Source of the DNA: an uncultured Latescibacterota bacterium
GTDB lineage: Bacteria; Latescibacterota; UBA2968
DNA: 64,000 nucleotides
Direction of reading: 5' to 3'
NCBI GenBank assembly: GCA_958295785.1
Contig: OY282377.1
Location: forward strand, 4,838,896-4,902,895
The notes beneath the pieces were generated by a model. It saw only the letters and a list, made by a program, of their open reading frames with translations, was not told the origin of the DNA and did no database searches. The position numbers were made by a program, and so were the translations under genes. Shown here one piece after another: positions 2,388 to 35,100 of this stretch (position 1 is its first letter; each line of letters begins with the position of its first letter).

Positions 2388-2393
2388 GTCCTA

Positions 2394-2776: not shown

Positions 2777-3026
2777 TTTGTGACAAATATCCGCTTTCCA
2801 TCCAACACTGCAAGCACTTTTCTCTGCAAAAGCAACTCTCTAATACGTCCATCCTCATTTCCCTTTTTTCCTTTCACCACCAAATCTAAAACCCGTGACA
2901 ACAACCCCCCCTTCATCATCCCCTGCATCCCTCCCAACATCCCCCGCCGCTCGTCCTTATCGCCTCCATCTGACGCCTCAACAACACCCAATGTCTGTCT
3001 CACAATGCACCGCCATTTTCTCATAC

Positions 3027-7834: not shown

Positions 7835-8142
7835 TAATCCGCGCAATCTGCTTAATCCGCGCTCCGCCTCTTGGGTCTGCCGTTTTGCGCTTTCCAGTAT
7901 AGGACTTTTCCCAACCCGCGTCAAGCGACTGCTCAAAATCGAGTTGGCCTGCACTTTGGGAAAAAAAACTTGCCAGTCCAGAACCCAACGAGTAGATTAC
8001 AAAATCTGATCGAGAGGGAGCGCGAAACCCAATGCGGGGCGGGTTTGCGAACGCCGCATTCCTCGGTTCCAGCCGCGCATGTGTGGCTGGGTGGTCTCTG
8101 TTCAATCCTGTAAATCCCGTTTCTATCTGGAGGAAAGTCTCA

Positions 8143-9960
8143 ATGCTCGCCCAAATGCGTAGTGCTACTTTTATCAAAGCGATGATGGTTATTGTCGCCG
8201 TTGCTTTTGTCGGCTTGATGGTGTTTGAATGGGGGGCTGATTTTAGCAGCCGGGGGTTTGCCACGGTTGGCGACAATGTCGGGTCTGTGAATGGGCAGGA
8301 AATTTCTGTCAAACAGTTTGAGGCCGAGATTCGGAATGACTTGCAACAGGCCAAAGCGCGGGGCAATGAAGACCCCGAGGTCAGCCAGATTATTTCTCAA
8401 GCATGGGAGCGCGTGGTGACGCAAATTTTGATTGGGCAACAAATTGACAAATACGGCATTGAGGTTTCCGATGCCGAAGTCAATCACGTCAACCGCACGC
8501 AACCCGCCGAGTGGATCCAGCAGCAGGAACTTTTCCAGACCGATGGCGCGTTTGCCCGCGCCAAATACCACCAATTCCTCGACAATCCCAGCACGTACAG
8601 CGACCCCCGGATGAAGCAATTTGTCTTTGCTGCCGAAGCCAATGCGCGGAGCCAATTGCTATCGCAAAAACTCGAAATGCTCATCGCTGGCTCGGTCAAA
8701 GTTACCGATGCCGAAATCGAGCAAACCCATATCGAGCGCAATGAAAAAGTGCGCGTGTCGTATATCGGCTTTGATGCGAGTGACATTCCCGACTCGCTCG
8801 CGCTGATCGCCGAGGCCGAAGTTCAGACCTATTACGATGAGCATTTGGACGAGTACCAGCAAGATGCCGCCGTACGCACGGCTTTTGTGGCGTTGCCCAA
8901 AACAGCCACAGCACGCGATGAAGCCGAAGCCAAAGCCGAGATTGATCGCGTTTTTAAGGAAGCCAAAGCCGGCGAGGATTTTGCCGAACTCGCCCGGGTG
9001 TATTCCGATGGGCCAAGCGGGTCGCGCGGGGGCGACTTGGGCTTTTTTGGCAAGGGGCGCATGGTCAAGCCCTTTGAAGAGGTGGCGTTCGCGCTCAAAG
9101 CGGGTGAGATCTCGGCCCCTGTCAAAACGCAGTTTGGCTGGCATATTATTAAAGCGGAAGAAACGAGGGGGGAAGCCGATAGCCTCGAGGTTCACGCACG
9201 GCATATTCTCATTGAAGTGCGCCCCGGGCGCGACACGTTGGACAGTTTGCGCGTGCTGGCCGAGGAGTTTGCGGAAATTGCCGAGGACATAGGGTTTGAC
9301 GAAGCGGTCAACCAGAAGGATTTGCAGAGTCAGGACTCGGATTTTATCACGGCCGGCAGCTTTTTTCCAATTTTGGGCAACAGCACGTCGGGTTTGGTCA
9401 ACAAATTTCTGCGCGGTTCTCTCGGGGATGTTTCCAGTGTTTATGAAAATGATCGGGGCATCCACGTTTTCGGGTTGCGAGAAATCCGAGACGCAGGGCC
9501 TCGCCCTTTGGAAGAAGTCAAAGCGCAGATTCAGGCCAGCCTAAAAGAAAAAAAGAAAGTGAAAGTTGCAGCGGACCGGTTGACCGAGGTGATGGGGCAG
9601 ATCAAGACGGGCAAATCACTCGAAGAAGCGGCGGCGTTTTTCAATCTCGAGGTGGAGACGCCGCAGGCGTTTGCGCGTATGGGCTTTGTCCCCGGTGTGG
9701 GCAGTCGCAATGCCTTTATCGGCACGGCGTTTCGCTTGGCCGAGGGACAGGTCAGCGACATCGTCACGACGGATCTCGGCGCGTATATTCTCCGCGTGGA
9801 TGAAAAACGAGCTGCGGGTGACTTGGCGTCTGAAAAAGAGGATTTGATGCAGCAGTTGTTGTCGCAAAAACGCCAAGAGGTGATCGAGGCGTGGTTTGCC
9901 GATTTGCGAGAAAACGCCGATATTGTCGATAATCGCCATTTCTTTTACGCCAACTATTAG
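8143..9960 (+). CDS. PpiD/SurA-type membrane-anchored peptidyl-prolyl isomerase
   Basis: A 605-aa protein. The start at 8143 follows GGAGGAAAG; the frame is open further upstream but without a ribosome-binding site. A short cytosolic start is followed by one membrane helix ([21 protein letters not shown], residues 8-28). Then come a SurA_N-like helical chaperone domain ([19 protein letters not shown] onward) and a parvulin/PpiC domain around 290-370, with the family signature [28 protein letters not shown] second parvulin-like part follows ([10 protein letters not shown] and, near 500, [18 protein letters not shown]). The family assists folding of outer-membrane and secreted proteins in the periplasm, which suits a cell exporting a giant autotransporter. 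NAD+ synthetase follows closely. Confidence 0.9.
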
Positions 9961-14191: not shown

Positions 14192-17100
14192 ATGAACGCG
14201 GGTACAATACATAGCACCCTCTCTCGGTGCGTTCTTCGCCTCGCAATTTTCGCCACCATTGCTTCGCTGTGGTGCGCTATTCCGGTCGAGGCGCAAACCA
14301 CGGCGGTACGCAGCGTGAGGATCACGTCGTCGCCAGAGAACGGCAACTACGCCGCCGGTGATACCATTACCGTGCGGGTGCTCTTCACTCGGGACAGCCG
14401 ATTCACTGTGGATACGTCATCTGGCACGCCCTATCTCGCGCTCGGGATCGGCAGTCAGACGCGCCGGGCGAATTACCACAACACCAGAAACGACTTCCTG
14501 CAATTCAAATATGTCGTACAGGCGTCGGATGAAGATGGCGACGGCATCAGCATCGCCGCCGGTGCGCTGATGCTCAACGGCGGCACCATTGTGGACGCCA
14601 ATGGCATTGCGCCCAATTTTTCCCTGGGTAGCCACGCCATTTCCAACGATGTGCGCCATACGGTGAACGACGCCAGTCCGTCCTTTGGCGCGGCGACTGT
14701 GGAAAGCAAGCTCTACGACACCAACACGCTGATCACGCCTATCGCGTTGCCGCCGGCCACGGGCGGCAATGGCATGTTGACCTACGCGCTGTCGCCGACT
14801 TCGTTGCCGACCGGCCTGACGTATAAGGCTTTGACGCGCACCATTGAAGGGACGCCGACCGCGGTTACGGCCATCAGTACCTACACTTGGAAGGCGACGG
14901 ATGGCGATGGCGATGCCGCGACGCTGACCTTCTCGTTGCGGGTGTGGGCACCCACGGGGCCGGCGATTGTAGGCGTGGGGGTGTCCGCGCCTCCTGCTGA
15001 TTCCACCTACCAGACCGGCGACATCATATACTCCCACCTCATCTATCGCGAGAAGGTGACCGTTACGGGGACGCCGCAACTCACGCTGGTCATCGGCGCA
15101 CACAAGCGCAAGGTCAATTATAGTCGTATCTCGTCCCTATACTTCAACAACTTTTTGCCGCCGGCCCAGCAACTACTGGTGGTCTTTCCCTACACGGTGC
15201 GGGCGAACGACTTCGATGGCGACGGCATCGCCATTCCGGCGGACGCGCTGAGCCTGAACGGGGGGACGATCCAGGCGGTGGCCAATAGCGCGGATGCCAA
15301 GCTCAACTTGGGAACGAATGCGATCAGGAGCGGCGACGCGAGGAGTGTCGAGATGCGGGTGCGGGACACGCAGCCCACTTTCTCCCAGAGCGCGAGTGCC
15401 GCCAACCGGTCGTTCGCGCTGAATGTGGCGACATCTACGACGTTGCCCACGGTGACGGGCGGCGATGGGCGTGTGACCTACAGCGTGTCCCCGGCGTTGC
15501 CCAGCGGTCTCACGCTGGGGAGCACGAGCCCCTCCGTGACCGGGACGCCCACAGTGTCGGGCGCGACCACGCACACGCTGACCGCGACGGATGTCGACGG
15601 CGATCAAGCGACGCTCGGCCCGTTCACTGTCACGGTGGCGGCGGTCAACGCGCCGAAACCGAGTAATCTGACCATCCTATCCCGGCCGTCCGATGGCGAC
15701 TACGCCACCGGCGAAGAGATCTGGGCTATCGTCTCGTTCGACAAGAACGTTACGGTGACCGGCACGCCGCAACTCGCGCTCACCATCGGCGCCAACACCC
15801 GCCAAGCGCCCTTCGACCCTTTCACCGGCGACGGAGACGACAAATCGTTCAAGTACACCGTGACGTCGTCGGACTTCGACGGCGACGGCATCGCCATCGG
15901 CGACGCCGCGTTGACGCTGAACGGCGGTAGCATCGTCGATGCCAGCGCCAGCACGGTGGCCGCCGCGCTCGACCTCAGTGCCCACGTCATTTCCGGCACC
16001 GGGCCCACGGTGAACGATACGCAACCTTCGTTCGGCAGTACCACGGTATCTGCCCAAAACTACCCCACGAGCACGGCGGTGGACGAATCGCTGCCAGTGC
16101 CCACCGGCGGCGACGGGACCCTTCGCTACTCCTTGGCGCCGTCTTTGCCGACGGGCCTCTCCTTTGACGCCACCCAGCACCGCATCCACGGCACGCCCAC
16201 CACGCGAACCGCGTCCGCGACCTATACCTACACGGCGACCGATGGCGATGGCGATGCGGCCTCGCTGAGCTTCTCGCTGGCGGTGACCACCGTTCCCGCG
16301 GTGAGCGCGGTGACCGTCAGTTCCAGCCCGGCGAGCGGCGACGCTTATGGCGCGCTGGAGACGATCAGCGTGGATGTGCGGTTCGACCAGGCGGTGACGG
16401 TTACCAGCCCCGACCCCAGTCTGGCGCTCACCGTCGGCACCTACACGCGCAGCGCGGCCCTGGCCAGCAAGCCCAACGCCAGCACCCTGCGCTTCAGCTA
16501 CCAAGTGCAGGCGTCTGACGATGACGATGACGGCATCAGCGTCGCCGCGGACGCGCTCACGCTGAACAGCACGGGTAAGCTGCGAGACGCGACGAACACC
16601 CGCGACGCCAACCTGTCCCTCGGCAGCTACGCCATCACCAACGCCAGCGCCCACAAGGTGGATACGCCGCCGAAGATCTCCGGCGTCGCCATCACCTCCC
16701 GTCCGACGGACGGCAACTACGCCGCCGGCAACGTGATCTCGGTGCGCCTCACGTTCACCGAGCCGGTGTTCGTGGGTAGCCCTCATCCGACGGTGGCGCT
16801 AACCATCGGCAGCGACCCGCGCACGGCGACGTGGTCCTCCGGCTCCGCGAGCGAGCCCTTCCACGACTTCACCTACACCGTGACGTCGTCGGACTTCGAC
16901 GGCGACGGCATCAGCATCGCCGCCAGCGCAGTGACCGCCAACCGCGGCTTCCGGACCTACCAACACACCGCCGATCCGCTTCGCCAGGCGCAGGTGGGCC
17001 TCGGTAGCCACGCCATCACCGACGACTCGAACCACCGCGTCCGCGACACGTCGCCTGCGTTCAGCGCCGCGGTGGCCGCGCAACACTACGTGGCGGGCAC

Positions 17101-20100
17101 GGCGGCGTCTCTGACCCTGCCCACGGCCACCGGCGACGGCAGCATTTCTTATGAGCTTACCAGCACGTTGCCGGGCGGGCTCACCTACAGCATCACCCGT
17201 AGCGACGACAGCATCACCCACAGCATCAGCGGCACGCCGGCAGCGGCGGCCACCGCCAGCGAGCAGACCTGGGTCGCCACCGACGGCGATGGCGACAAGA
17301 CGACCCTGACCTTCACCATCACCGTGGCGGCGGCCGACGCGCCGAAGGTGTCGGCGTTGATCTTCATTGATTCGCCGAGGAGCAACAACACCTACGTCCT
17401 CGGCGAGGACATCAACGTGGGTCTCAAGTTCGACAAGGCTGTCACGGTGGGCACGCTGCGGCCGTGGCCGCGGCTGGCGTTGACTATCGGTGCCCAGACG
17501 CGCTACGCGAGCTACATCTCGTTGATCGCGAGTGGGCATCTTGTGTTCACCTACACCGTCCAGGCGGACGACCTCGACACCGACGGCATCAGCATCGGCG
17601 CCAGTGCCCTGTCGCTGAACGGCGGCAGCATCGTCCAGTCGAGCGACGCCAGCGTCGCCGCCTCGTTGGCACTGGGTAGCTTCGCGGTTACCGACGACAC
17701 CGACCGCAAGGTAAATGGCGGCACCAACGACGCGCCCTCGGTGAGCTCGGTCAACCTCCAGTCCACGCCCGTGATAAGCGACGGCTACGCCGTGGGCGAA
17801 GTGATCCGCCTCAGCGTCGGGTTCACGGAAGATCTGGCGGTGAACGGATCGCCGCGGTTGGCTATTGACATCGGGGACAGCACGCGGCAGACGACCTTTG
17901 ACCGGGTGGAGGGGCTTAGGACGCTACATTTCCGGTACACGGTGCAAACATCCGACGATGACGCCAACGGCATCAGCGTCGCCGCGGGCGCGCTGACGTT
18001 GCCGGCCGGCGCGACCATCCGGGACCTCTACGGCGAAGACGCGACCCTCGGTCTCGGCAGCCACGCGCTGGCCGATCAGTCGGCTCACAAGGTCCACACG
18101 CCGCCCAAGGTCACGGGGCTCTCTATCGCCTCCACGCCACAGCAAGCCAACACCTATACCCGGGGCGGAACGATCACGGCGCGGGTGACTTTCGACCAGA
18201 AAGTTACCGTGGCCGGCAGTCCCGAACTCGCCCTCACTATCGGCAGCTACACGCGCACGGCGACGGCAGCGGCCGGCGGCGGCAACGCCTATGTCGATTT
18301 CAGCTATACCGTGGTGGCCGCGGATGCGGACACCGATGGCATCGGCATCGCCGCGGGCGCGCTGACCCTGCCGACCGGCGCGACCATCCAGGATGTGGCC
18401 GGCGGCGACGCGGCGCAGGATCTCAGCAGCTACGCCTCAACCCTCTTCGCGGCGACTAAGGTCGATGGCAGCCGCACGGGCCGCTGGCCGGATTTTGGCT
18501 CGGCGACGGGACCGGACTTGCTACTGATGGTGAGCACTGCGGCCTTCTCCAACCTGCCCACGTCTTCTACGGGCGATACGCCGCTGGCCTATACGGTGTC
18601 GCCGGCACTGCCGGCCGGCCTGACCCTGGGCCGCGTCACCGGGGCCATCAGCGGCACCGCGACCGCGGAATCGCCCTCCATCAAGTACACGCTGACGGTG
18701 ACGGACGCCAACGGCGACACCGATACCCTGCCGTTCGCCCTGGGGGTGACCGGCAACCGCCCGACAGTGCGCGGCGTGAGTTTCCTGTCTAGCCCGTCCG
18801 CGGCGAGCACCTATGGACGCTATGATGATATCCTGGTGTCGGTCCGCTTTTGGCGGCAAGGCACAGGTGCCATGGTGGTCAGCGGGGTGCCTCGTCTGGC
18901 GATCAATGTCGGGGGTGTTACCCAGCAGGCCGCCTACTATGCGGTCAGCGGCGACAACGTGCGGTTCCGCTACACTGTGCAGGCGGGGGACAGGGACACC
19001 GACGGCGTCTCTATCGGCGCAGGTGCCCTGACTCTGAACGGCGGTACCATCCGAGACGGCGCCTTGAACAACGCGGTGCTCAGTCTGGGCCGCCACACCG
19101 TCGCCAACCACGCGTCGCACAAGGTGGACGCCACAATCACGCGCGCGCCGAGCGTGGCTGGCGTGACCATCACATCTCGCCCGGCGACCGGCGACACCTA
19201 CAGCCGCGGGGAGACTATCGAGGTTGCGGTTCGCTTCAGCCAGGGCGTGGGCATAACGGGAACGCCGCAACTCGCCCTGAGCATTGGCACTGTCACCCGC
19301 CAAGCGGACTACAACCGCACCACCTCGGCGACGCATTACTTCCGCTATGTGGTGCAACAGGCCGACATGGACATCAACGGCCTCAGCATCGGGACCGGCG
19401 CCCTGACCCTGAACAGAGGCTCCATCCGCAGCAACCAGAATCGCAACGCGGTGCTCGGCCTGGGCAGCCACGCCATCACCAATGCCGCCAACGCCAAGGT
19501 GAACGGCGCCGCGAACTCGCCGGCGGTCGTGACCGGCGTGTCCATCACATCCCGCCCGGCGCGCGGCAACACCTTCATTCTGGGCGAGGAGATCCAGGTG
19601 CGGGTGACGTTCAACAAGGCGGTGACGGTAAACGCCGGTATCTGGAGGGGACTCATTAACAACAGACCGTTTTTCAGATTTCCGTTTTTGGAACTCACTA
19701 TCGGTAGCTTGACGCGACAGGCAGTCAACAAAAACCCGGGGGAATGGCAGGCGGACCCGCCGAGCACCACCCACACGTTCCGCTACACGGTGCAGGTCGG
19801 CGACTATGACAGCGACGGCCTTGGCATCGCCGCCAATGCACTGAAGTTGAACGAAGGCCCCGGCCAAATTCGCAACAATGGCGTGGATGCGAACATCAAC
19901 TTAGGTAGCCACGCGATCAGCGCCTCGGCGTACAAGGTGGACGGGCGCAGGGCGAGCGTGTCCAGGGTGAGAATCACGTCGTCGCCCAGTGCCGACAATA
20001 CCTACGCGGCGGGCGAACACATTTCGGTGGGGATCACGTTCAACATGCCGATCCGCATCACCACGGGGTCCACCGTACCGAAGCTGGATCTCGCCGTCGG

Positions 20101-23100
20101 CAGCCAGACGCGGCAGATGTATTACAACGGCTTCAGCGCGAACGGCTTCTCCTTTCGCTACACCGTGCAGGCGGGCGACCACGACGCCGACGGGGTCAGC
20201 TTCGGCGCGAGCGCGCTGAAGCTGAACGGCGCCGTGATCGAAACGGCGGCCAACGGCAACCGGGCGGTGACCACCATCAGCGGCGTCCAAGGCGGAACCA
20301 GCCACAAGGTGGATGGCTCCATACGGCCGCCGGTGGTGAGAACCCTCTCGATGAACAGCCCGCAGCGCGGTTCGACCTTCGACCTCCACGAGAGGATCAA
20401 GATCACCGTCGGGTTCACCCAGAGCGTGACGGTGACCGGCACCCCGCGCCTGTCCCTCGTCATCGGCTCCTCGTGGAAGACGTTGAACATGAGCTCGCGC
20501 TCCGGGAGCGGGACCACACTCAATTTCGTTTACACGGTGCAGGCCACCGATCTCGACACCGACGGCGTGGAAGTGCCTGCCAACTCGCTGTCGCTGAACG
20601 GCGGCACCATACGCAACCAGCACGGCGTGGATGCGGCGCTGGGCCACAGATCCATACGGAGCTACTTGTACCGCTATAACACCCCTAACGTCGACGGCAG
20701 GACGAACCACCCGCCGGTGGTGACCCGTGCGTATTTCGCGGGCCGTCCGGCCGGTGGCGTGTACGGCCGGGGCGACAGGATCGAAGTCAATATCAACTGG
20801 GGCAAGGCCGTGACCACCACCGGCACGCCGCAGCTCGCCATCGACGTCGGCACCGGCACCCGCCAGGCAGCGCGGCAGAGCGGGAATCAGTACTACACCC
20901 GCTTCCACTACACCGTGCAGGCGGGCGACCTCGACACCGACGGCATCAGCGTCGGCAGCGGCGCCCTGACCCTGAACGGCGGCACGATCAAAGGCCCGGG
21001 CAACACCGACGCCAGCCTGACGTTGCCGGCCATAGGCAGGGACGCCAATCGGCGCGTGGACGGACGGGTGCTGCCACAGCCGACCTTCTCCGAAACGGTG
21101 CCGGCGCTGACGTGGACCGTCGGCTCCAGCGTTAGTCGGTCGCTGCCCGCCGCCACCGGCGCGCGGGGCACCATCAGCTACGCGATCCTGCAGGCGTTGC
21201 CGGCCGGCCTGTCGTTCACCGCCGCGTCCCGGACCATCTCCGGCACGCCGACCACCGTGACCGCGCGGGCCACCTACACGCTGGAGGCGACCGACAGCGT
21301 GACCAACGCCAAGGGCACGCGGGCCTTCACCATCGAGATCACGCCGAGCGCCGTTCCGGTGTTCGTCCCCAACACCTTCGACGCGCAGGTTTACGTCAAG
21401 GACGAACTCCTCACCCCGGTCGCGTTGCCGGCCGCCACCGGCGGCAACGTGCCGTTGAGCTACGCGCTGACCGGGCCTGGCACCGCGACGACCCTGACCC
21501 TGCCCGCTGGCGTCTCCTACACCCAGCCCACCGGTACGACCACCGGCGGCACCCTCTCTGGCACCCCCACCGCGGTGGCCGCCCAGGCCACCTACACGCT
21601 GACCGCCACCGACAGGGACAACGACGAGGCCACGCTCACCTTCACGATTGAGGTGCAGGAAGATGCACAGCCCACCTTCGGGACCGCCACCGTGGCGGAC
21701 CAGTCGTGGAAGAAGAACAAGGCGATCACGGCGATCACGTTGCCGACCGCCACCGGCGGCAATGGCACCTTGTCCTACGCCCTCTCTCCCGCCCTGCCGG
21801 CCGGAGTGGCGAAGGACGCGAGCCACGAGATCAGTGGCACGCCGAGCGTGACTCTCGCGGCGACCACCTACACCTGGACGGCTACGGACGTCGATGGCGA
21901 CAGCGCGGAGTTGACCTTCACCATCACCGTGGCGGACAACAGCCTGCCGGCATTCACGGGCCTTGCGCCCAAGAACCGCGTGTGGACGCGCTACAAGAGT
22001 GCCGGCGCCACTCTTCCTCCGGCGTTCGGCGGCGACGCTCCGTTGACCTACACGCTGTCGCCGGCCCTGCCGGCCGGCATGACGCGCGCCGCCAGCCCGG
22101 GCGATGAGCCCGGCGGGCCGCCGGTGGACACCTACAACCGCGTATTAACCGGCACACCCACGGTGGAGATGGCTAGGACTTCGTACGCCTGGACGGTCAC
22201 CGACGTGGACGGGGACCAGGCGGTGTGGGATTTCACCATCACGGTATTGGACAACGCCCGGCCCGACTTCGGCGCCGCGACTATCGCGGACAAGTCGTGG
22301 ACGCGGCGCAAGGCGATCACGGCGTTCATGCTGCCGACCGCCACCGGCGGCGATGGCAGTGTGTCTTATTCGATCTCTCCCGCCTGGCCGGCTGGGGTGA
22401 CGAAGGCCACCAACCACCAAGTCAGCGGCACGCCGACCACGGCACAGGCGCTGACCTCGTACACCTGGACAGCCACCGACGGGGATGGGGACAAGGCGTC
22501 GCTGACGTTCACCATCACGGTGGTGGATCGGCCGCTGACGACGCTGGTGCTCTCGCCTTCGACTATCGACGAGCACGACGGGACGAACCCCGGCTCGGCG
22601 ACGGTGACCGCGACGCTGAACAAGGCGGCGAGGGCGGCGACGATGGTGACGGTGTCTGCAACGGCGGGGACGAACGCCGAGGCGAGTGACTTCACGTTGA
22701 GCGCGAACAAGACGCTGACAATCGCGGCGGGCGCGACGACGAGTACTGGGACGGTGACGATCACGGCGGTGAACAACGCAGACGTCGAGCCGGACAAGTC
22801 GATCATCGTGTCGGGAAGCGTGGGCAACGACGGGGTGGCCGCCCCGGACGACGTGACGCTGACCATTGACGACGACGACGGGGCGAAGGCGACACTGGTT
22901 CTCACACCTTTGACGATCAGCGAGAGCGGGACGGGCAATGCGACGACGGTGACCGCGACTCTGGACCAGGCGGCGAGGGCGGCGACGATGGTGACGGTGT
23001 CTGCAACGGCGGGGACGAACGCCGAGGCGAGTGACTTCACGCTGAGCGCGAACAAGACGCTGACAATCGCGGCGGGCGCGACGACGAGTACTGGGATCGT

Positions 23101-26100
23101 GACGATCACGGCGGTGAACAACGCAGACGTCGAGCCGGACAAGTCCGTTACCGTGTCGGGAACAGTAGGAAACGCCGATGTGATCGCCCCGGCCGCCGTG
23201 ACGCTGACCATTGAAGACGACGACAGGGCGACGGCGACGCTGGTTCTCACGCCTGCGACGATCAGCGAGAGCGGGACGGGCAATGCGACGACGGTGACCG
23301 CGACTCTGGACCAGGCGGCGAGGGCGGCGACGACGGTGACGGTGTCTGCAACGGCGGGGACGAACGCCGAGTCGGGGGACTTCACGCTGTCGGGCACGAC
23401 GACGCTGACGATAGCGGCGGGCGCGACGACGAGCACCGGTACCGTGACGATCACGGCGGTGAACAACGCAGATGCCGAGCCGGATAAGTCGATCACGGTG
23501 TCGGGAACAGTAGGAAACACCGATGTGGTCGCCCCGGCCGCCGTGACGCTGACCATTGAAGACGACGACAAGGTGCCGTCGAGACTGGTGCTCTCGTCTT
23601 CGACCATCGCCGAGTACGACGGGACGAACGTCGGCTCGGCGACAGTGACCGCGACGCTGGGCCAGGCGGTGAGCGCGGCGACGACGGTGACGGTGTCCGC
23701 AACGGCGGGGACGAACGCCGAGTCGGGGGACTTCACGCTGAGCGCGAACAAGACGCTGACAATCGCGGCGACCGCGACGACGAGCACCGGGACCGTGACG
23801 ATCACGGCGGTGAACAACGCGGCCATGGAACTGGACAAGTCCGTCACTGTGTCGGGAACAGTGGGAAATATCGAGGTATCTGCCCCGGCCGACGTGACGT
23901 TGACTATCACCGACGACGACCGCGATCCTTTGACACCGACGTTTTTCATCGATTCGCCGAGCGTCGCCGAGGGAGGGCCGGGGGACTTTAACTCGCTGGA
24001 CTGGACGGTGACGCTTATTCCGGCGAGCAGCCAGGATGTGCGGGTCGGAATCGCCGTTGACGGGACCGCCAGCACCGCGATCATGGGGACACCTAGGACG
24101 AGGGAGCAAACGGGAGCGGATCACGGTTTTCCGGATGGGCAGGATCTGACTTTCGTGGCGGGACAGACCAGCAGGACTATCGGAGTGACGGTGTACGGCG
24201 ACGCGACGGTGGAGCCGGACGAGACGGTGGTCATGAAGATGAGCGGCCCGTACTTGAGCGACGCGACGCTGGGCAACACGATCGGGACCGGCAAGATCCT
24301 CAACGACGACACGCTGCCGGCGGTGACGCTGGCAGTAGGGACCTCGGCGATCTCAGAGGACGGCGGGACGACGACGGTGACGGCGACGTTGAATCGGGTG
24401 TCGGGCGCGGCGACGACGGTGAAGGTGGCGGGGGTGGCGGGCGCGTACACGGTGGCCATGGACTCGACGATTGTGATTGCGGCCGGCGAAACGTCGAACA
24501 CATCTGACAGCGTGACGATTACCGCGGTGAACGACGACATTGACAATGTGGGCAACCGCTCGACGACGGTGACGGGCACGGCGGAGAACACGGCCGGCGT
24601 GACGGGTGCCGCGCTGACGCTGACCGATGACGAGGCGACGCCGGTGGCGACGCTGGCGTTGTCGGAGCCGAATGTGTCGAAGCCGGACACGATCAATGAG
24701 AGCGGGACAGGGAATGCGAGCACGGTGACGGCGATGCTGAACTGGGCGTCGAGCGAGGATGTGATACTGACGGTCAGCGCGGCGGCCGGTGCAAACGCCG
24801 CGGCGAGTGACTTCACGCTGTCGGGCACGACGACGCTGACGATAGCGGCGGGTGAGACGACGAGCACCGGGACCGTGACGATTACGGCGGTGGACAACAC
24901 TAAAGATGAGCCTGACAAGTCCGTGACCGTGTCGGCAGCGGCGAGTGGCAACAGTGGCGTGGTGAATCCGGTGGACGCGACCCTGACGATTGCCGATGAC
25001 GATGACGCGCCTTCTGTATCGATCAATTCGCCGAGCGTCACAGAGGGTGCGTCCGGTTCGACCGCGACGTTGACGTATGAAGTAACGCTGAGTGCGGCGA
25101 GTGGGAAACAGGTCACGGTGGCTTATGCCGATGCCAGTACGGGCACGGCGTCGCGTGCGGACGACTACACGGCGTTGTCTTCGGGCACGCTGACGTTTGC
25201 AGCGGATGCGACGAGCGCGACGATTGATGTGACGATCACCGGCGATGGGATAGATGAGCCGGATGAGACGATCATAGTCGAGTTGAGCAGTCCGACCAAC
25301 GCGACGTTGGGCACGGCGTCGAGCGGGACAGGGACGATCACCGACGATGACGACGCGCCGAGTGTGACGCTGGTTTTGTCGCATGAGACGATTGATGAGA
25401 GTGGCACGACGACCGCAACGACAGTGACCGCGACATTAGATCATGCGTCGAGCGCGGCAACCACTATAACGGTATCCGCGGCGGCGGGCACGAATGCAGG
25501 ATCGGGCGATTTCACGTTGAGCACGGACAAAACGCTGACCATAGCGGCCGGTGAGACGACGAGCACCGGGACAGTGACGATTGCGGCGGTGGACAATGAC
25601 AAAGATGAGCCGAACAAGGAAGTGACCGTTTCGGGAACAGCGGACAATAGCCAAGGCATAACCGCTCCGACTGACGAGACGCTGACGATTACCGATGACG
25701 ATGCCGCGCCGAGTGTGACGTTGGTTTTGTCGCATGAGACGATTGATGAGAGTGGCACGACGACCGCAACGACAGTGACCGCGACATTGGATCATGCGTC
25801 GAGCGCGGCAACCACTATAACGGTATCCGCGGCGGCGGGCACGAATGCAGGATCGGGCGATTTCACGTTGAGCACGGACAAAACGCTGACCATAGCGGCC
25901 GGTGAGACGACGAGCAGTGGGACAGTGACGATTACGGCGGTGGACAATGACAAAGATGAGCCGAACAAGGAAGTGACCGTTTCGGGAACAGCGGACAATA
26001 GCCAAGGCATAACCGCTCCGTCTGACGAGACGCTGACCATTGCCGATGATGAGAGTACACCGACGGTTTCGCTGTTCTTGTCGCCTGCTACAATTTCAGA

Positions 26101-29100
26101 GAACGGTGGTGTGGCAACAGTGACCGCGACATTGGATCATGCGTCAAGTGCGGCGACAACGATCACAGTCTCAGCGGCGAGTGGTGGTTTCACGTTGAGC
26201 GCGAACAAGACGCTGACGATAGCGGCGGGTGAGACGACGAGCACCGGTAGCGTGACGATCTCAGCGGAGAACAATGACAAAGATGAGCCGGATAAGTCCG
26301 TGACCGTTTCGGGAACAGCGAGCGGTGGTCGTGGTGTGTCTAATCCGTCCGACGTGACGTTGACGATTACCGATGATGAAAGTACACCGACGGTGACGCT
26401 GTCCTTGTCGCCAACGTCGATTTCAGAGAACGGTGGTGTGGCAACAGTGACCGCGACGTTGAGCGGTGCATCGAGTGCGGCGACAACGATCACAGTCTCA
26501 GCGTCGGGTGGCGGTTTCACATTGAGTTCGGACAAGACGCTGACGATAGCGGCGAGCGCGACGACGAGCAGTGGCGCCGTGACGATTTCAGCGGTGGACA
26601 ATGACAAAGATGAGCCAGATAAGTCCGTGACCGTGTCGGGTTCGGCGACGAATAGTCAAGGCATAACTGATCCGACTGACGAGACGTTGACGATTACCGA
26701 TGACGATGACGCGCCTTCGGTATCGATCAATTCGCCGAGCGTCGCAGAGGGTGCGTCCGGTTCGACCGCGACGTTGACGTATGAAGTAACGCTGAGTGCG
26801 GCGAGTGGGAAACAGGTCACGGTGGCTTATGCCGATGCCAGAACGGGCACAGCGTCGCGTGCGGACGACTACACGGCGTTGTCTTCGGGCACGCTGACGT
26901 TTGCGGCGGATGCGACGAGCACGACGATTGATGTGACGATCACCGGCGATGGGATAGATGAGCCGGATGAGACGATCATAGTCGAGTTGAGCAGTCCGAC
27001 CAACGCGACATTGGGCACGGCGAGCGGGACAGGGACGATCACCGATGATGACGACAAGCCAAGTGTGACGCTGTCCTTGTCGCATGCGTCGATTTCAGAG
27101 ACCGGTGGTGTGGCGACAGTGACCGCGACGTTGAGCGGCGCGTCGAGTGCGGCGACGACGATCACAGTCTCAGCGTCGGGTAGCGGTTTCACGTTGAGCG
27201 CGAACCAGACGCTGACGATAGCGGCGGGCGCGACGACGAGCACTGGCAGCGTGACGATTTCAGCGGAGAACAATAACAAAGATGAGCCGGATAAGTCCGT
27301 GACCGTTTCGGGTTCAGCGAGCGGTGGTCGTGGTGTGTCTGATCCGTCGTCCGTGACATTGACGATTACCGATGACGATGACGCGCCTTCGGTATCGATC
27401 AATTCGCCGAGCGTCACAGAGGGTGCGTCCGGTTCGACAGCGACGTTGACGTATAAAGTAACGCTGAGTGCGGCGAGTGGAAAACAAGTCACGGTGGCTT
27501 ACGCCGATGCCGGTACGGGCACGGCGTCGTCGAGTGCGGACTACACGGCGTTGTCTTCTGGCACGCTGACGTTTGCGGCGGGTGAGACGAGCGCGACGAT
27601 TGATGTGACGATCACCGGCGATGGGATAGATGAGCCGGATGAGACGATCATTGTCAAGTTGAGCGGTCCGACCAACGCGACGTTGGGCACGGCGAGCGGG
27701 ACAGGGACGATCACCGATGATGACGACGCGCCGAGTGTGACGCTGGTTTTGTCGTCAACATCAATTTCAGAGAGCGGTGGTGTGGCGACAGTGACCGCGA
27801 CGTTGAGCGGTGCATCGAGTGCGGCGACAACGATCACAGTATCCGCCACGGCAGGCACGCATGCAGAAGCAACCGATTTTACGCTGAGTTCGGACAAGAC
27901 GCTGACGATAGCCGCTGGTCAGACGACGAGCAGTGGCACCGTGACGATTACGACCAATGACAATAACAAAGATGAGCCAGATAAGTCCGTGACCGTGTCG
28001 GGTTCGGCGACGAATAGTCAAGGCATAACTGATCCGACTGACGAGACGTTGACGATTGCCGATGACGATGCCGAGCCTTCGGTATCGATCAATTCGCCGA
28101 GCGTCGCAGAGGGAGCGTCCGGTTCGACAGCGACGTTGACGTATGATGTAACGCTGAGTGCGGCGAGTGGGAATCAGATCACGGTGGCTTATGCCGATGC
28201 CAGTACGGGCACGGCGTCGAGTGCGGACGACTACACGGCGTTGTCTTCTGGCACGCTGACGTTTGCGGCGGGTGAGACGAGCGCGACGATTGATGTGACG
28301 ATCACCGGCGATGGGATAGATGAGCCGGATGAGACGATCATCGTAGAGTTGAGCGGTCCGACCAACGCGACGTTGGGCACGGCGTCGAGCGGGACAGGGA
28401 CGATCACCGACGATGACGCCGCGCCGAGTGTGACGCTGTTTTTGTCGCCTGCGACGATTGATGAGAGTGGCACGACGACCGCAACGACAGTGACCGCGAC
28501 ATTGGATCATGCGTCGAGCGCGGCAACAACGATCACAGTCTCAGCGTCGGGTGGCGATTTCACGTTGAGCACGGCCAAGACGCTGACGATAGCGGCGGGT
28601 GAGACGACGAGCAGTGGCACCGTGACGATTGCGGCGGTGGACAATGACAAAGATGAGCCGGACAAGGAAGTGACCGTTTCGGGAACAGCGGACAATAGCC
28701 AAGGTATAACTGATCCGTCTGACGAGACGCTGACGATTCGCGATGACGATGCCGCGCCGAGTGTGACGCTGTTTTTGTCGCCTGCGACGATTGATGAGAG
28801 TGGTACGACGACCGCAACGACAGTGACCGCGACATTGGATCATGCGTCGAGCGCGGCAACCACTATAACGGTATCCGCGGCGGCGGGCACGAATGCAGGA
28901 TCGGGCGATTTCACGTTGAGCACGGCCAAAACGCTGACCATAGCGGCCGGTGAGACGACGAGCAGTGGGACAGTGACGATTACGGCGGTGGACAATGACA
29001 AAGATGAGCCGAACAAGGAAGTGACCGTTTCGGGTTCGGCGAATAACAGTCAAGGCATAACCGCTCCGTCTTCAGTGACCTTGACGATCCGAGACGACGA

Positions 29101-32100
29101 TGCCAAGCCGAGTGTGACGCTGGTGCTAACGCCAACGGAGATTGACGAAAGTGGCGCGACGACTTCAACGACAGTGACCGCGACATTGGATCATACGTCG
29201 AGCGCGGCAACCACTATAACGGTATCCGCCACGGCAGGTGCGAATGCAGAAGCAACCGATTTCACGTTGAGTTCAGACAAGACGCTGACGATAGCGGCGG
29301 GCGAGACAACGAGCAGTGGGACCGTGACGATTTCAGCGGAGGACAATAACAAAGATGAGCCGAACAAGGAAGTGACCGTTTCGGGAACAGCGGACAATAG
29401 CCAAGGCATAACCGCTCCGACTGACGTGACGTTGACGATTACCGATGATGAGGGGCCGCCGACGGTGAAGTTGGTTTTGACGCCAACGGAGATTGACGAA
29501 AGTGGAGGGACGACCTCGACGACAGTGACCGCGACATTGAACCGAGCGTCGAGCGCGACGACGACGGTCACGGTATCGGCGATGGCGGGCACGAATGCAG
29601 AAGCAACCGATTTCACGTTGAGTTCGGACAAGACGCTGACGATAGCGGCGGGCGAGACAACGAGCAGTGGGACCGTGACGATTGCGGCGGTGGACAACGA
29701 CCAAGATGAGCCGAACAAATCGGTGGTCGTTTCGGGTTCGGCAAATAACAGTCAAGGCATAACCGCTCCGTCTTCAGTGACGCTGACGATCCGAGACGAC
29801 GATGCCAAGCCGAGTGTGACATTGGTGCTAACGCCGACGGAGATCGACGAAAGTGGAGGGACGACCTCAACGACGGTCACGGCGACATTGGATCATACGT
29901 CGAGCGCGGCAACCACTATAACGGTATCCGCCACGGCAGGTGCGAATGCAGAAGCAACCGATTTCACGTTGAGTTCAGACAAGACGCTGACGATAGCGGC
30001 GGGCGAGACAACGAGCAGTGGGACCGTGACGATTTCAGCGGAGGACAATAACAAAGATGAGCCGAACAAGGAAGTGACCGTTTCGGGAACAGCGGACAAT
30101 AGCCAAGGCATAACCGCTCCGACTGACGTGACGTTGACGATTACCGATGATGAGGGGCCGCCGACGGTGAAGTTGGTTTTGACGCCAACGGAGATTGACG
30201 AAAGTGGAGGGACGACGTCAACGACAGTGACCGCGACATTGGATCATACGTCGAGTGCGGCGACAACGATCACAGTCTCCGCTACGGCAGGTGCGAATGC
30301 AGAAGCAACCGATTTCACGTTGAGTTCAGACAAGACGCTGACGATAGCGGCCGGTGAGACGACGAGCAGTGGGACCGTGACGATTGCGGCGGTGAACAAT
30401 GACAAAGATGAGCCGGATAAGTCCGTGACCGTTTCGGGTTCGGCGAATAACAGTCAAGGCATAACCGCTCCGTCTTCAGTGACGCTGACGATCCGAGACG
30501 ACGATGCCAAGCCGAGTGTGACATTGGTGCTAACGCCGACGGAGATCGACGAAAGTGGAGGGACGACCTCAACGACGGTCACGGCGACATTGGATCATAC
30601 GTCGAGCGCGGCAACAACGATCACAGTATCTGCGACGGCGGGCACGAATGCAGGATCGGGCGACTTCACGTTGAGTCCTGACAAGACGCTGACGATAGCG
30701 GCCGGTGCAACGACGAGCAGTGGGACCGTGACGATTACGGCCAATGACAACAACAAAGATGAGCCGAACAAATCAGTGACCGTTTCGGGAACAGCGGACA
30801 ATAGCCAAGGCATAACCGATCCGACTGACGTGACGTTGACGATTACCGATGATGAGGGGTCGCCGACGGTGAAGTTGGTTTTGACGCCAACGGAGATTGA
30901 CGAAAGTGGAGGGACGACCTCAACGACAGTGACCGCGACATTGAACCGAGCGTCGAGCGCGACGACGACGGTCACGGTATCGGCGATGGCGGGCACGAAT
31001 GCAGAAGCAACCGATTTCACGTTGAGTCCTGACAAGACGCTGACGATAGCGGCGGGCGCGACAACGAGCACTGGCACCGTGACAATTACGGCCAATGACA
31101 ATAACAAAGATGAGCCGAACAAGGAAGTGACCGTTTCGGGTTCGGCGAATAACAGTCAAGGCATAACTGATCCGTCTTCAGTGACATTGACTATCCGAGA
31201 CGACGATGCCAAGCCGAGTGTGACATTGGTGCTAACGCCAACGGAGATTGACGAAAGTGGAGGGACGACCTCAACGACGGTCACGGCGACATTGGATCAT
31301 GCGTCGAGTGCGGCGACAACGATCACAGTCTCCGCGACGGCAGGTGCGAATGCAGAAGCAACCGATTTCACGTTGAGTTCGGACAAGACGCTGACGATAG
31401 CGGCGGGCGCGACGGCGAGCAGTGGCACCGTGACGATTTCAGCGGAGAACAATGACCAAGATGAGCCAGATAAGTCCGTGACCGTTTCGGGTTCGGCGAA
31501 TAACAGTCAAGGCATAACCGCTCCGTCTTCAGTGACCTTGACGATCCGAGACGACGATGCCAAGCCGAGTGTGACGTTGGTGCTAACGCCAACGGAGATT
31601 GACGAAAGTGGAGGGACGACGTCAACGACAGTGACCGCGACATTGGATCATGCGTCGAGCGCGGCGACAACGATCACAGTCTCCGCGACGGCAGGCACGA
31701 ATGCAGGATCGGGCGATTTTACGTTGAGTTCGGACAAGACGCTGACGATAGCGGCGGGCGCGACGACGAGCACTGGCACCGTGACGATTTCAGCGGTGGA
31801 CAATAACAAAGATGAGCCGGACAAATCGGTGACCGTTTCGGGTTCGGCGAATAACAGTCAAGGCATAACCGCTCCGTCTTCAGTGACGCTGACGATCCGA
31901 GACGACGATGCCAAGCCGAGTGTGACATTGGTGCTAACGCCGACGGAGATTGACGAAAGCGGAGGGACGACGTCAACGACAGTGACCGCGACATTGGATC
32001 ATACGTCGAGCGCGGCAACCACTATAACGGTATCCGCCACGGCAGGTGCGAATGCAGAAGCAACCGATTTCAGGTTGAGCACGGCCAAGACGCTGACGAT

Positions 32101-35100
32101 AGCGGCGGGTGCGACGACGAGCAGTGGCACCGTGACGATTACGGCGGTGAACAATGACAAAGATGAGCCGAACAAGGAAGTGACGGTTTCGGGTTCGGCG
32201 ACGAATAGTCAAGGTATAACTGATCCGACTGACGAGACGTTGACGATTGCCGATGACGATGCCGAGCCTTCGGTATCGATCAATTCGCCGAGCGTCGCAG
32301 AGGGAGCGTCCGGTTCGACAGCGACGTTGACGTATGATGTAACGCTGAGTGCGGCGAGCGGGAAACAAGTCACGGTGGCTTATGCCGATGCCAGTACGGG
32401 CACGGCGTCGCGTGCGGACTACACGGCGTTGTCTTCTGGCACGCTGACGTTTGCGGCGGATGCGACGAGCACGACGATTGATGTGACGATCACCGGCGAT
32501 GGGATAGATGAGCCGGATGAGACGATCATTGTCAAGTTGAGCGGTCCGACCAACGCGACGTTGGGCACGGCGAGCGGGACAGGGACGATCACCGACGATG
32601 ACGACGCGCCGAGTGTGACGCTGGTTTTGTCGTCAACATCAATTTCAGAGAGCGGTGGTGTGGCGACAGTGACCGCGACGTTGAGCGGCGCGTCGAGTGC
32701 GGCGACAACGATCACAGTATCCGCCACGGCGGGCACGAATGCAGAAGCAACCGATTTCAGGTTGAGCACGGACAAGACGCTGACGATAGCGGCGGGCGCG
32801 ACGACGAGCAGTGGGACCGTGACGATTACGGCGGAGAACAATAACAAAGATGAGCCAGATAAGTCCGTGACCGTGTCGGGTTCGGCGACGAATAGTCAAG
32901 GCATAACTGATCCGACTGACAAGACGCTGACGATTACCGATGACGATGACGCGCCTTCGGTATCGATCAATTCGCCGAGCGTCGCAGAGGGAGCGTCCGG
33001 TTCGACAGCGACTTTGACGTATAAAGTAACGCTGAGTGCGGCGAGTGGGAAACAAGTCACGGTGGCTTATGCCGATGCCAGTACGGGCACAGCGTCGCGT
33101 GCGGACGACTACACGTCGTTGTCTTCGGGCACGCTGACGTTTGCAGCGAATGAGACGAGCACGACGATTGATGTGACGATCACCGGCGATGGGATAGATG
33201 AGCCGGATGAGACGATCATTGTCAAGTTGAGCGGTCCGACCAATGCGACGTTGGGCACGGCGAGCGGGACAGGGACGATCACCGATGATGACGACAAGCC
33301 AAGTGTGACGCTGTCCTTGTCGCATGCGTCGATTTCAGAGAACGGTGGTGTGACGACAGTGACCGCGACATTGAGCGGTGCATCGAGCGCGGCGACGACG
33401 ATCACAGTCTCGGCGTCGGGTGGCGATTTCAGGTTGAGCGCGAATAAGACGCTGACCATAGCGGCAGGTACGACGACGAGCAGTGGCACCGTGACGATTA
33501 CGGCGCAGGACAATAACAAAGATGAGCCGGATAAGTCCGTGACCGTTTCGGGTTCGGCGAGCGGTGGTCATGGTGTGTCTGATCCGTCCGCCGTGACGTT
33601 GACGATTACCGATGATGAGGGTACACCGACGGTTTCATTGGTTTTGTCGCATGCGTCGATTTCAGAGAACGGTGGTGTGGCGACAGTGACCGCGACATTG
33701 AGCGGTGCATCGAGCGCGGCGACGACGATCACAGTCTCGGCGTCGGGTGGCGATTTCACGTTGAGCACGGACAAGACGCTGACCATAGCGGCGAGCGCGA
33801 CGACGAGCACCGGTAGCGTGACGATCTCAGCGGAGAACAATGACAAAGATGAGCCGGATAAGTCCGTGACCGTTTCGGGTTCAGCGAGCGGTGGTCGTGG
33901 TGTGTCTGATCCGTCGTCCGTGACATTGACGATTACCGATGACGATGACGCGCCTTCGGTATCGATCAATTCGCCGAGCGTCGCAGAGGGGGCGTCCGGT
34001 TCGACCGCGACGTTGACGTATGAAGTAACGCTGAGTGCGGCGAGTGGGAAACAGGTCACGGTGGCTTATGCCGATGCCAGTACGGGCACAGCGTCGCGTG
34101 CGGACGACTACACGTCGTTGTCTTCGGGCACGCTGACGTTTGCAGCGAATGAGACGAGCACGACGATTGATGTAACGATCACCGGCGATGGGATAGATGA
34201 GCCGGATGAGACGATCATCGTAGAGTTGAGCGGTCCGACCAACGCGACATTGGGCACGGCGAGTGGGACAGGGACGATCACCGACGATGACGACGCGCCG
34301 AGTGTGACGCTGGTTTTGTCGCATAAGTCAATTGATGAGAGTGGCACGACGACCGCAACGACAGTCACCGCGACGTTGAGCGGTGCATCAAGTGCGGCGA
34401 CGACGATCACAGTCTCAGCGTCGGGTGGTGGTTTCACGTTGAGCACGGACAAGACGCTGACGATAGCGGCCGGTGAGACGACGAGCACCGGCACCGTGAC
34501 GATTACGGCGGTGGACAATGACAAAGATGAGCCGGATAAAGAAGTGACCGTTTCGGGTTCGGCGACGAATAGCCAAGGCATAACTGATCCGTCCGACGAG
34601 ACGCTGACGATTCGCGATGACGAGGGTTCGCCGACGGTGACGCTGGTTTTGTCGCCAACGTCAATTTCAGAGAACGGTGGTGTGGCGACAGTGACCGCGA
34701 CGTTGAGCGGTGCATCGAGCGCGGCGACAACGGTCACAGTCTCAGCGTCGGGTAGCGATTTCACGTTGAGCGCGAACAAGACGCTGACGATTGCGGCGGG
34801 CGCGACGACGAGCAGTGGCACTGTGACGATTACGGCGGTGAACAATGACAAAGATGAGCCGGACAAGGAAGTGACCGTTTCGGGTTCGGCGAATAACAGT
34901 CAAGGCATAACTGATCCGTCCGACGAGACGCTGACGATTACCGATGATGAGGGTTCGCCGACGGTTTCCCTGGTTTTGTCGTCAACATCAATTTCAGAGA
35001 ACGGTGGTGTGGCGACAGTGACCGCGACGTTGAGCGGTGCGTCGAGTGCGGCGACAACGATCACAGTATCCGCCACGGCGGGCACGAATGCAGAAGCAAC

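What the first reader, a model, noticed from the sequence alone, without database searches (positions are those of the whole stretch)
14290..21060. Unnamed 100-aa module with DxDxDG loop, 14 copies
The N-terminal module (GxYxxGxxIxVxVxF, then LxLxIGxxTRxA, then DxDxDG[IV]) differs from the Calx-beta and He_PIG modules that dominate the rest and is regularly interleaved with He_PIG domains. Low DNA identity shows old divergence under protein-level constraint. I cannot match it to a named domain.
Basis: partly seen in the sequence, partly recalled or inferred. Interest (0 to 1): 0.55.

Follow-up and report, generated by a model that had tools for sequence, protein, structure and literature searches.

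The report
Unnamed calcium-loop Ig module, giant autotransporter
Fourteen diverged copies of an unnamed, very widespread immunoglobulin-like building block, each with the same predicted calcium-binding loop, form the outer end of a 10,882-residue bacterial surface protein that appears to be exported and anchored by an autotransporter barrel.

Summary
One ORF (14192-46840 +, 10,882 aa) carries 14 copies of a ~123-aa module at 14306-21064; a genome-wide profile search finds no others. Protein identity averages 41%, DNA 54.5%. Dx[DN]x[DN]G occurs 15 times in the ORF: once per module, once in the barrel; shuffles of the region give 0.2. Interleaving with He_PIG is only partly regular.

No Pfam or NCBIfam model passes its cut-off for the 14 copies. 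AlphaFold2 gives an all-beta, Ig-like model (pLDDT 97.5) with the acidic motif in a loop. Nearest curated families are Big_12 and Big_5; one distant relative passes the Big_5 cut-off. The module is common: 310 places in one pattern scan, kept loci in 13 named phyla, and phages. Two ORFs hold 89 and 92 tandem copies plus a homologous barrel.

The window protein ends in an autotransporter-type barrel (best fold matches EspP, NalP, BrkA), so the modules should be the distal head of a giant surface fibre. Similar head layouts occur in Spirochaetia, Binatia and Dehalococcoidia records; the Dehalococcoidia ones end in a Pro/Thr-rich stretch and a hydrophobic segment instead of a barrel.

Ca2+ binding and adhesion are inferred, not shown.

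The parts
14192..46840 (+). giant ORF, 10,882 aa
14192..14296 (+). N-terminal hydrophobic segment, likely Sec signal peptide (end approximate)
   Evidence: hydrophobicity only
14306..14671 (+). module M1
14972..15349 (+). module M2
15662..16018 (+). module M3
16298..16666 (+). module M4
16673..17047 (+). module M5
17342..17719 (+). module M6
17738..18100 (+). module M7
18101..18469 (+). module M8
18764..19132 (+). module M9
19142..19507 (+). module M10 (structure predicted, pLDDT 97.5)
19532..19945 (+). module M11
19958..20317 (+). module M12
20327..20698 (+). module M13
20702..21064 (+). module M14
14528..14545 (+). DxDx[DN]G loop of M1; the other 13 start at 15209, 15872, 16517, 16892, 17570, 17954, 18323, 18989, 19364, 19802, 20177, 20549, 20927
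   Evidence: residue numbers converted
14669..14950 (+). He_PIG domain between M1 and M2; further ones within the M region at 15365-15643, 16016-16291, 17045-17332, 18479-18754
21074..22528 (+). run of five He_PIG domains after M14
22520..39601 (+). Calx-beta array: 37 matches of a profile built from nine window copies; 15 of them also found by Pfam's own model at E 0.001
39926..45463 (+). second He_PIG stretch, 19 matches; 41724-45198 is a tandem array of 12.8 copies at 88% DNA match
41054..41314 (+). one fibronectin type III domain
45473..46837 (+). C-terminal domain with predicted autotransporter translocator fold

Best explanation
The module is an Ig-like domain of a very widespread family that Pfam and NCBIfam do not model. 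Shown here: 14 copies; the conserved DxDx[DN]G loop; a confident all-beta model whose structural neighbours are Ig-like domains; the family's spread; and a C-terminal domain with the predicted fold of an autotransporter translocator. Inferred: the ORF is a type V (autotransporter-like) surface protein. Its barrel sits in the outer membrane, the Calx-beta and second He_PIG arrays form the stalk, and the 14 modules with interleaved He_PIG domains form the head farthest from the cell. In each module the DxDx[DN]G loop most likely binds one Ca2+ in the way described for Dx[DN]xDG motifs in other folds, which stabilises the domain. With 0-4 residues between adjacent copies this gives a stiff rod that presents individually different domain surfaces for attachment to other cells or a host. 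That Ca2+ stiffens the junctions, and that the head is adhesive, are analogies with Ca2+-dependent extender domains and are the least certain steps.
For: 14 copies, all with the loop, 0.2 expected from shuffles. In seven giant ORFs the loop is in 254 of 264 modules (14/14, 26/26, 8/11, 15/16, 14/16, 86/89, 91/92), and the motif occurs only once outside a module in all seven. In the wider family 529 of 695 distinct modules carry it. AlphaFold2 model of M10: pLDDT 97.5, all-beta, residues 75-80 in a loop between strands 64-70 and 81-83. Structure matches include Ig-like, filamin and S-layer domains. Barrel: Foldseek rank 1 BrkA 4.2e-6; VIA Z 18.5 EspP, 17.2 NalP, 17.0 Hbp, 16.9 EstA, 16.6 AIDA-I; N-terminal helix followed by long strands. 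Two Longimicrobiales ORFs are 89 and 92 tandem modules plus a homologous barrel, linkers mostly 3-4 aa. PMC3123361 (section 5 part 1 of 2 and passages seen) describes Dx[DN]xDG loops binding Ca2+ in 16 structural contexts; PMC7493085 (passages) reports Ca2+ in the linkers of all four RTX extender structures it compares.
Against: No metal is modelled and no coordinates were available, so loop geometry is untested. The EF-hand position 12 is Asp in 2 of 14 and Asn in 2. PMC3123361 says each known case has a further ligand after the motif; the best candidates here are N91 (12 of 14) and D97 (6 of 14), neither universal. The loop is missing in 158 of 676 aligned family modules and in all 12 cyanobacterial hits, so the fold does not need it. 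No solved structure matches at Foldseek E 0.001 or better, and the best VIA Z of 8.2 is in the range seen without true relatives. The barrel model is moderate (pLDDT 70.8), other outer-membrane barrels match it too (CymA Z 16.6, FadL 14.8), and no Pfam or NCBIfam barrel model passes. PMC7493085 states that autotransporter adhesins do not require Ca2+ for rigidity. No ligand-binding domain was identified.
Confidence: 0.68

Rival explanations
1. Same Ig-like fibre domain, but the DxDx[DN]G loop is a tight acidic turn that does not bind metal with useful affinity; the modules are spacers.
For: The further ligand expected after the motif is not universal; 158 of 676 family modules lack the motif.
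Against: The first two Asp and the Gly are invariant in 14 of 14 and the fifth position is always D or N, retained in 254 of 264 modules of seven giants, a pattern expected for a metal site.
Confidence: 0.22
2. The module is a divergent branch of Pfam Big_12 (PF19078) or Big_5 (PF13205) rather than a family of its own.
For: They are the most frequent Pfam neighbours: 13 and 12 of 83 members, best 7.5e-5 and 2.9e-4. One Azospirillum relative (L031:4361-4711) passes the Big_5 cut-off (25.0 against 23.6 bits) and nearly reaches Big_12 (24.9 against 27). The match to Big_12 covers the N-terminal strands with the F-S-E-x-V signature.
Against: None of the 14 copies passes either, and that relative is one of the more distant ones. 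Profile-profile probability with Big_12 is only 39.8%, over 40 columns; Big_5 was not compared by profile. The Big_12 units aligned here are about 90 aa and their consensus has no DxDxDG.
Confidence: 0.28
3. The 14 copies are independent recruitments of unrelated Ig-like domains or a low-complexity artefact.
For: Low pairwise identity, down to 29%.
Against: All 14 align over full length with 11 invariant columns, and the profile, which was built from them, recovers each at over 120 bits; an alignment-independent check is that the same family is found in other genomes.
Confidence: 0.01

Closest known systems
Pfam Big_12 (PF19078) and Big_5 (PF13205), bacterial Ig-like domains
   Same: Ig-like domains; weak sequence similarity (13 and 12 of 83 members); one distant relative passes Big_5
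   Different: none of the 14 copies passes; the module is longer (119-138 aa) and carries the DxDx[DN]G loop
PHROG families 30287 and 11617 (phage proteins, function unknown)
   Same: direct profile matches, 14 of 14 and 10 of 14 copies; Marinobacter phages PS3 and PS6 hold the module
   Different: unnamed; in the two Marinobacter phages one match each, in hypothetical proteins of about 730 aa; the members of the PHROGs themselves were not examined
Ca2+-dependent RTX adhesin extender domains (MpIBP, MhLap, AhLap; BIg domains of SiiE)
   Same: tandem beta-sandwich domains in giant surface proteins; Ca2+ role proposed by analogy (PMC7493085, passages)
   Different: no RTX nonapeptide in the window ORF; barrel-type anchor rather than type I secretion (inferred); sequence similarity to those domains was not tested beyond the PDB sequence search, which did not list them
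Type Va autotransporters (EspP, NalP, BrkA, Hbp, AIDA-I)
   Same: predicted translocator fold of the C-terminal domain
   Different: passenger of about 10,400 aa made of Ig-like domains, not a beta-helix (the usual beta-helix is recalled); no Pfam autotransporter model hit at E 0.01
Dx[DN]xDG calcium loops (EF-hand, integrin calcium blades, gingipain adhesin domain)
   Same: same linear motif (strict in 12 of 14), all-beta setting (PMC3123361)
   Different: an Ig-like setting is not mentioned in the main text (0 occurrences of immunoglobulin or Ig-like; its Table S1 was not seen); no universal later ligand

Membership tests
Pfam Big_12 (PF19078) | score over the curated 27-bit cut-off | tested here: not met
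   no hit for the 14 copies; 13 of 83 family members hit, best 7.5e-5, which by the scores is under 25 bits; ten relatives scanned singly, best 24.9 bits; profile-profile 39.8%
Pfam Big_5 (PF13205) | score over the curated 23.6-bit cut-off | tested here: not met
   no hit for the 14 copies; 12 of 83 members below it (best 2.9e-4; bits inferred); but one of ten plasmid and phage relatives passes at 25.0 bits
Pfam He_PIG (PF05345) | profile match | tested here: not met
   He_PIG matches the interleaved domains, no M copy on its own; hhalign 4.8%
Pfam Calx-beta (PF03160) | profile match | tested here: not met
   first window match at 24110, after the M region; hhalign 12.5% against nine near-identical copies
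Pfam SWM_repeat (PF13753) | profile match | tested here: not met
   no match in own genome; hhalign 0.6%; in G008 it lies next to M modules as a separate domain
Ig-like fold | all-beta model whose structural neighbours are Ig-like domains | tested here: met
   AlphaFold2 pLDDT 97.5, strands throughout with one 3-residue helical turn; VIA rows include Ig, filamin and S-layer domains, Z 5.0-8.2. Sheet arrangement not inspected; fold class only
Dx[DN]xDG calcium loop | the linear motif | tested here: met
   strict in 12 of 14; N at the fifth position in 2 (M7, M10)
Dx[DN]xDG calcium loop | further acidic or amide ligand after the motif | tested here: inconclusive
   N91 12 of 14, D97 6 of 14; geometry not available
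Dx[DN]xDG calcium loop | Ca2+ bound | not testable with these tools
   needs protein
EF-hand | acidic ligand at position 12 and helix-loop-helix | tested here: not met
   position 12 is D in 2 of 14, never E; flanks are strands
Type V autotransporter | C-terminal translocator barrel (predicted fold) | tested here: met
   model confidence moderate, and other outer-membrane barrels match at lower Z
Type V autotransporter | N-terminal Sec signal | tested here: inconclusive
   hydrophobic segment at residues 14-32; no dedicated predictor available
RTX adhesin (type I secreted) | GGxGxDxUx repeats | tested here: not met
   none in the window ORF by pattern

The most novel reading that the evidence does not exclude
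The M/He_PIG head is one mobile unit that has crossed phyla, including from two-membrane to one-membrane envelopes, keeping much of its domain order while the anchor was exchanged: autotransporter-type barrel in the window genome, Spirochaetia and Binatia; Pro/Thr-rich spacer plus a hydrophobic segment in Dehalococcoidia. The module itself is an Ig-like setting for the Dx[DN]xDG calcium loop that is not mentioned in the main text of the 2011 survey.
Probability: 0.4. Interest if true: 0.68.

Novelty: new variant of a known kind. Interest (0 to 1): 0.5.

Why it matters
A domain found at 310 places in one pattern scan, with kept loci in 13 named phyla, and up to 92 times in one protein has no curated name, so the annotated records seen here carry labels such as 'Ig-like', 'autotransporter domain-containing' or 'hypothetical'. 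Naming it would annotate some very large bacterial proteins. If the loop binds Ca2+, it joins the DxDxDG loop to a very common extracellular fold and gives a clear test of how autotransporter fibres are stiffened. If the head moved between phyla with its anchor swapped, it is a surface device tuned to neighbours rather than to lineage.

Tried and rejected
SWM_repeat was expected from memory to be this module; it is not, it is a separate neighbouring domain. The PDB sequence searches gave only chance-like hits (designed scIg12 at 0.0028, fatty-acid binding proteins, FimA). One row of the fold list, the CLIPPER domain (9ifr, Z 5.2), was followed in PMC12617251 (passages); the module has no invariant Lys for such an isopeptide bond (commonest is K119, 8 of 14).

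The argument 'all 14 window modules are closer to another phylum than to any sibling' was tested and weakened: the pool of foreign modules is larger, and Longimicrobiales arrays with a different layout give 12 and 14 of 14 as well. With equal pools of 11 the fractions are 0.78 (Spirochaetia), 0.60 (Binatia), 0.59 and 0.34 (Dehalococcoidia), 0.64 and 0.69 (Longimicrobiales). Reciprocal-best order passes for Spirochaetia (8 pairs, 7 in order, p 0.0012) and Binatia (5 of 5, p 0.008) but not for the two Dehalococcoidia proteins (2 pairs, p 1.0; 5 pairs, 4 in order, p 0.14). Binatia and Dehalococcoidia do not pass against each other either (p 0.84, 1.0). In the Dehalococcoidia proteins the last block of six modules is broken by 63 and 114 residues after its third module. 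So shared descent of the head rests on the tree, the layout, linker lengths and ordered pairs, and is weakest for Dehalococcoidia.

A first viral scan with one module found no relatives. A comparison of motif-bearing and motif-less modules for a further Ca2+ ligand gave no clear candidate. Five short peptide strings searched in the paper library gave 0 papers; naming of this module in print was not otherwise excluded, and UniProt, InterPro and CDD were not available. The organism was not identified. Paper searches; papers opened: PMC3123361, PMC12617251, PMC12153261, PMC7493085.
Full report
WHAT IS THERE. The window lies in a 5.66-Mb one-contig genome. One ORF, 14192-46840 +, encodes 10,882 aa. 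Its first 2,300 residues hold 14 copies of a module (M), found by a self-built profile at 120.9-150.3 bits each and nowhere else in the protein above 0 bits or in the genome at E 0.01. Lengths are 119-138 aa, median 123. The alignment has 11 invariant columns: P10, I21, P42, G49, F67, Y69, V71, D75, D77, G80, V120 in the numbering of the first copy. The loop DxDx[DN]G is in 14 of 14; Dx[DN]x[DN]G occurs 15 times in the whole ORF, once per module and once in the barrel; 1000 shuffles of aa 39-2291 average 0.2 with a maximum of 3.

TWO REGIMES IN ONE GENE. The 14 modules average 41.4% protein and 54.5% DNA identity over 91 pairs (range 29-52% and 46-62%); third codon positions match at 49.9% against 39.5% expected by composition. 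The nine best of the 15 Calx-beta matches in the window are 93.1% and 94.7% identical among themselves, and the tandem-repeat finder reports the Calx-beta and second He_PIG arrays but not the M region. The M region is old; the stalk arrays were amplified recently.

FOLD. AlphaFold2 on M10 with an 83-row alignment (14 window copies, 69 from named records) gives mean pLDDT 97.5 and pTM 0.89, strands throughout, with residues 75-80 (the acidic motif) in the loop between strands 64-70 and 81-83. Foldseek finds no PDB chain at E 0.001 or better. The second aligner lists SIAE 8f9o (Z 8.2, 2.4 A, 91 aligned), DUF4785 4kh9 (7.6, 3.2 A, 101), S-layer SbsC 2ra1 (7.2, 2.7 A, 92), then among others sulfite dehydrogenase and oxidase, filamin, transglutaminase and antibody domains at Z 5.0-6.2. 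These are fold-class matches only. Among viral models the best is an 'S-layer domain protein' of Prochlorococcus phage P-SSM7 (E 2.5e-6, TM 0.71, 26% identity).

FAMILY. No Pfam model passes its cut-off for the 14 copies; over 83 members Big_12 is hit by 13 and Big_5 by 12, best E 7.5e-5 and 2.9e-4. Of ten plasmid and phage relatives scanned singly (10 of the 11 in A4), one passes Big_5 (25.0 bits, cut-off 23.6) and none passes Big_12 (best 24.9, cut-off 27). NCBIfam gives nothing near a cut-off. Two unnamed phage families match. Profile comparison: A4 relatives 99.9%, Big_12 39.8%, Calx-beta 12.5%, He_PIG 4.8%, SWM_repeat 0.6%. A scan of one genome per species with two short patterns found 386 stretches, 310 with a relative; the best 80 gave 76 loci. 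With 12 viral loci these hold 767 module hits, 637 near full length; some loci overlap, and 695 long enough hits are distinct. Kept loci fall in 13 named phyla by record title: Gemmatimonadota, Pseudomonadota, Bacillota, Chloroflexota, Bacteroidota, Acidobacteriota, Spirochaetota, Bdellovibrionota, Cyanobacteriota, Binatota, Planctomycetota, Verrucomicrobiota, Campylobacterota; 13 loci have no phylum in that list. 529 of the 695 distinct modules have Dx[DN]x[DN]G, none of 12 hits in Cyanobacteriota. Plasmid records with the module are annotated 'Ig-like domain-containing', 'DUF4347 domain-containing', 'autotransporter domain-containing' or 'autotransporter-associated beta strand repeat-containing', or have no gene listed there.

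THE WHOLE PROTEIN. The C-terminal 453 residues have no Pfam match at E 0.01, no NCBIfam match near a cut-off and no PDB sequence match. An AlphaFold2 model from 12 sequences (pLDDT 70.8; under 50 at 31-63, 68-71, 81-91, 357-379, 438-442) shows an N-terminal helix and long strands. Foldseek's first hit is BrkA (4.2e-6; 62 chains at E 0.001 or better, LptD and TonB-dependent receptors among them); the second aligner puts EspP (Z 18.5, 3.9 A, 263 aligned), NalP (17.2), Hbp (17.0) and EstA (16.9) first, CymA and AIDA-I at 16.6, and other outer-membrane barrels below. I conclude that the ORF is an autotransporter-like protein and, from the known topology of that class (recalled), that the M region is its distal end. 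A second barrel in the genome, 78% identical, sits on a 3,504-aa ORF without M. The window also holds a SurA-like peptidyl-prolyl isomerase gene (8032-9960), which fits an outer-membrane envelope.

RELATED GIANTS. Seven ORFs were read in full. M = module, H = He_PIG, C = Calx-beta. Window: MHMHMHMMHMMMHMMMMMMHHHHH, C array, H array, barrel. Spirochaetia record (11,163 aa): 26 M, ending HMMMMMMHHHHH then ten C with one H, barrel. Binatia record (8,745 aa): 11 M, MHMHMMMHMMMMMMHHHHHHH, C array, H array, barrel. Two Dehalococcoidia records (9,728 and 6,660 aa): 16 M each, HMHMHMHMHMMMHMMMHMMMMMM, then 68 and 36 H; no barrel, and none at E 0.001 in either genome; instead hydrophobic segments near both ends and a Pro/Thr-rich tail (27% and 22% Pro). 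Two Longimicrobiales records (12,557 and 13,298 aa): 89 and 92 M in a row, linkers mostly 3-4 aa, then a homologous barrel. The loop is in 254 of 264 modules across the seven. The last block of six modules has linkers 4-4-1-2-4 in the window, 4-4-1-3-7 in Spirochaetia and 4-4-1-3-8 in Binatia; in Dehalococcoidia it is 4-4-63-6-4 and 4-4-114-12-4, so the block is interrupted there.

SHARED DESCENT OF THE HEAD. In a 74-row tree starred forks join window modules with modules of other records: M3 and M6 with Spirochaetia, M10 with Binatia, M8 with Spirochaetia and Binatia, M9 with Spirochaetia, Binatia and Dehalococcoidia, M2 and M12 with Dehalococcoidia, M5 with Spirochaetia and Dehalococcoidia. 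M11, M13 and M14 are unresolved; M1, M4 and M7 group without a star; the tool warned of few columns. Reciprocal best pairs: window-Spirochaetia 8, 7 in order (M6 and M7 are swapped), p 0.0012, 57% identity; window-Binatia 5 of 5, p 0.008, 57%; window-Dehalococcoidia not significant. A control showed that 'closer to another phylum than to siblings' is no evidence by itself, because Longimicrobiales arrays of another layout give the same. ATP synthase alpha identity to the window genome is 93% within the genus (2 genomes), 64-78% in family, order and class (6), 60 and 64% in two same-phylum genomes, 65 and 55% for two pieces in a third, with only paralogue hits in a fourth; 59% Binatia, 54% Spirochaetia and Dehalococcoidia, 52% Longimicrobiales. 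Paired head modules are thus about as similar across phyla as ATP synthase. Against the window's profile, kin genomes reach at most 108.9 bits (14 of 60 with a match), while the six Spirochaetia, Binatia, Dehalococcoidia and Longimicrobiales records reach 143.7-156.6 bits; four Pseudomonadales records are lower, best E 7e-30 to 7e-34. Those records were picked as the best of a large scan, which favours high scores. This favours transfer between lineages but does not prove it; record labels come from metagenome assemblies and were not checked further, and Binatia is barely outside the same-phylum range.

CALCIUM. PMC3123361 (section 5 part 1 of 2, and passages) reports Dx[DN]xDG loops binding Ca2+ near-identically in 16 structural contexts, with a further acidic or occasionally amide ligand later in the sequence. 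Its main text does not mention an Ig-like context. Here the first two Asp and the Gly are invariant and the fifth position is D (12) or N (2). Later candidates are N91 (12 of 14) and D97 (6 of 14; 52 of 69 outside). The classical EF-hand position 12 is Asp in 2 of 14 and Asn in 2. I put Ca2+ binding at about 0.7 and a role in stiffening at about 0.5. PMC7493085 (passages) shows linker Ca2+ in all four RTX extender structures it compares, and also says autotransporter adhesins do not require it; PMC12153261 (passages) describes a Ca2+-dependent Ig-like adhesin with Calx-beta repeats.

VERDICT. A real, well-bounded and unnamed domain family of an ordinary fold class, in an unusually large surface protein. 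The specialist interest lies in its spread without a name, the very constant acidic loop, and the similar heads with different anchors.

Noticed in passing
G064:C2 about 177637-215310 and G065:C1 about 2156660-2196560 (loci L175-L180): Longimicrobiales ORFs of 12,557 and 13,298 aa made almost wholly of 89 and 92 tandem copies of this module plus an autotransporter-type barrel.
   Followed up: partly
G062 and G063 (loci L170-L173): Dehalococcoidia giants with a similar head layout but hydrophobic segments near both ends and Pro/Thr-rich spacers instead of a barrel.
   Followed up: partly
G000:C1:4646188-4647555 (-): second barrel 78% identical to the window's, on a 3,504-aa ORF without this module: one barrel, different stalks.
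   Followed up: no
window 59888-59995: perfect 7-bp repeat CAGATGT x 15.4 just after the ORF 58597-59874, which has no Pfam match at E 0.001.
   Followed up: no
window 2004-2778: 383-bp tandem duplication, 2 copies, 96% match, overlapping ORF 1332-2387.
   Followed up: no
L029 and L174 (Marinobacter phages PS3 and PS6): the module also occurs in hypothetical phage proteins of about 730 aa; in PS3 the gene lies near the terminase and portal genes.
   Followed up: partly
window 5173-7386 (-): M23 peptidase with a C-terminal sub-threshold Big_13 match.
   Followed up: no
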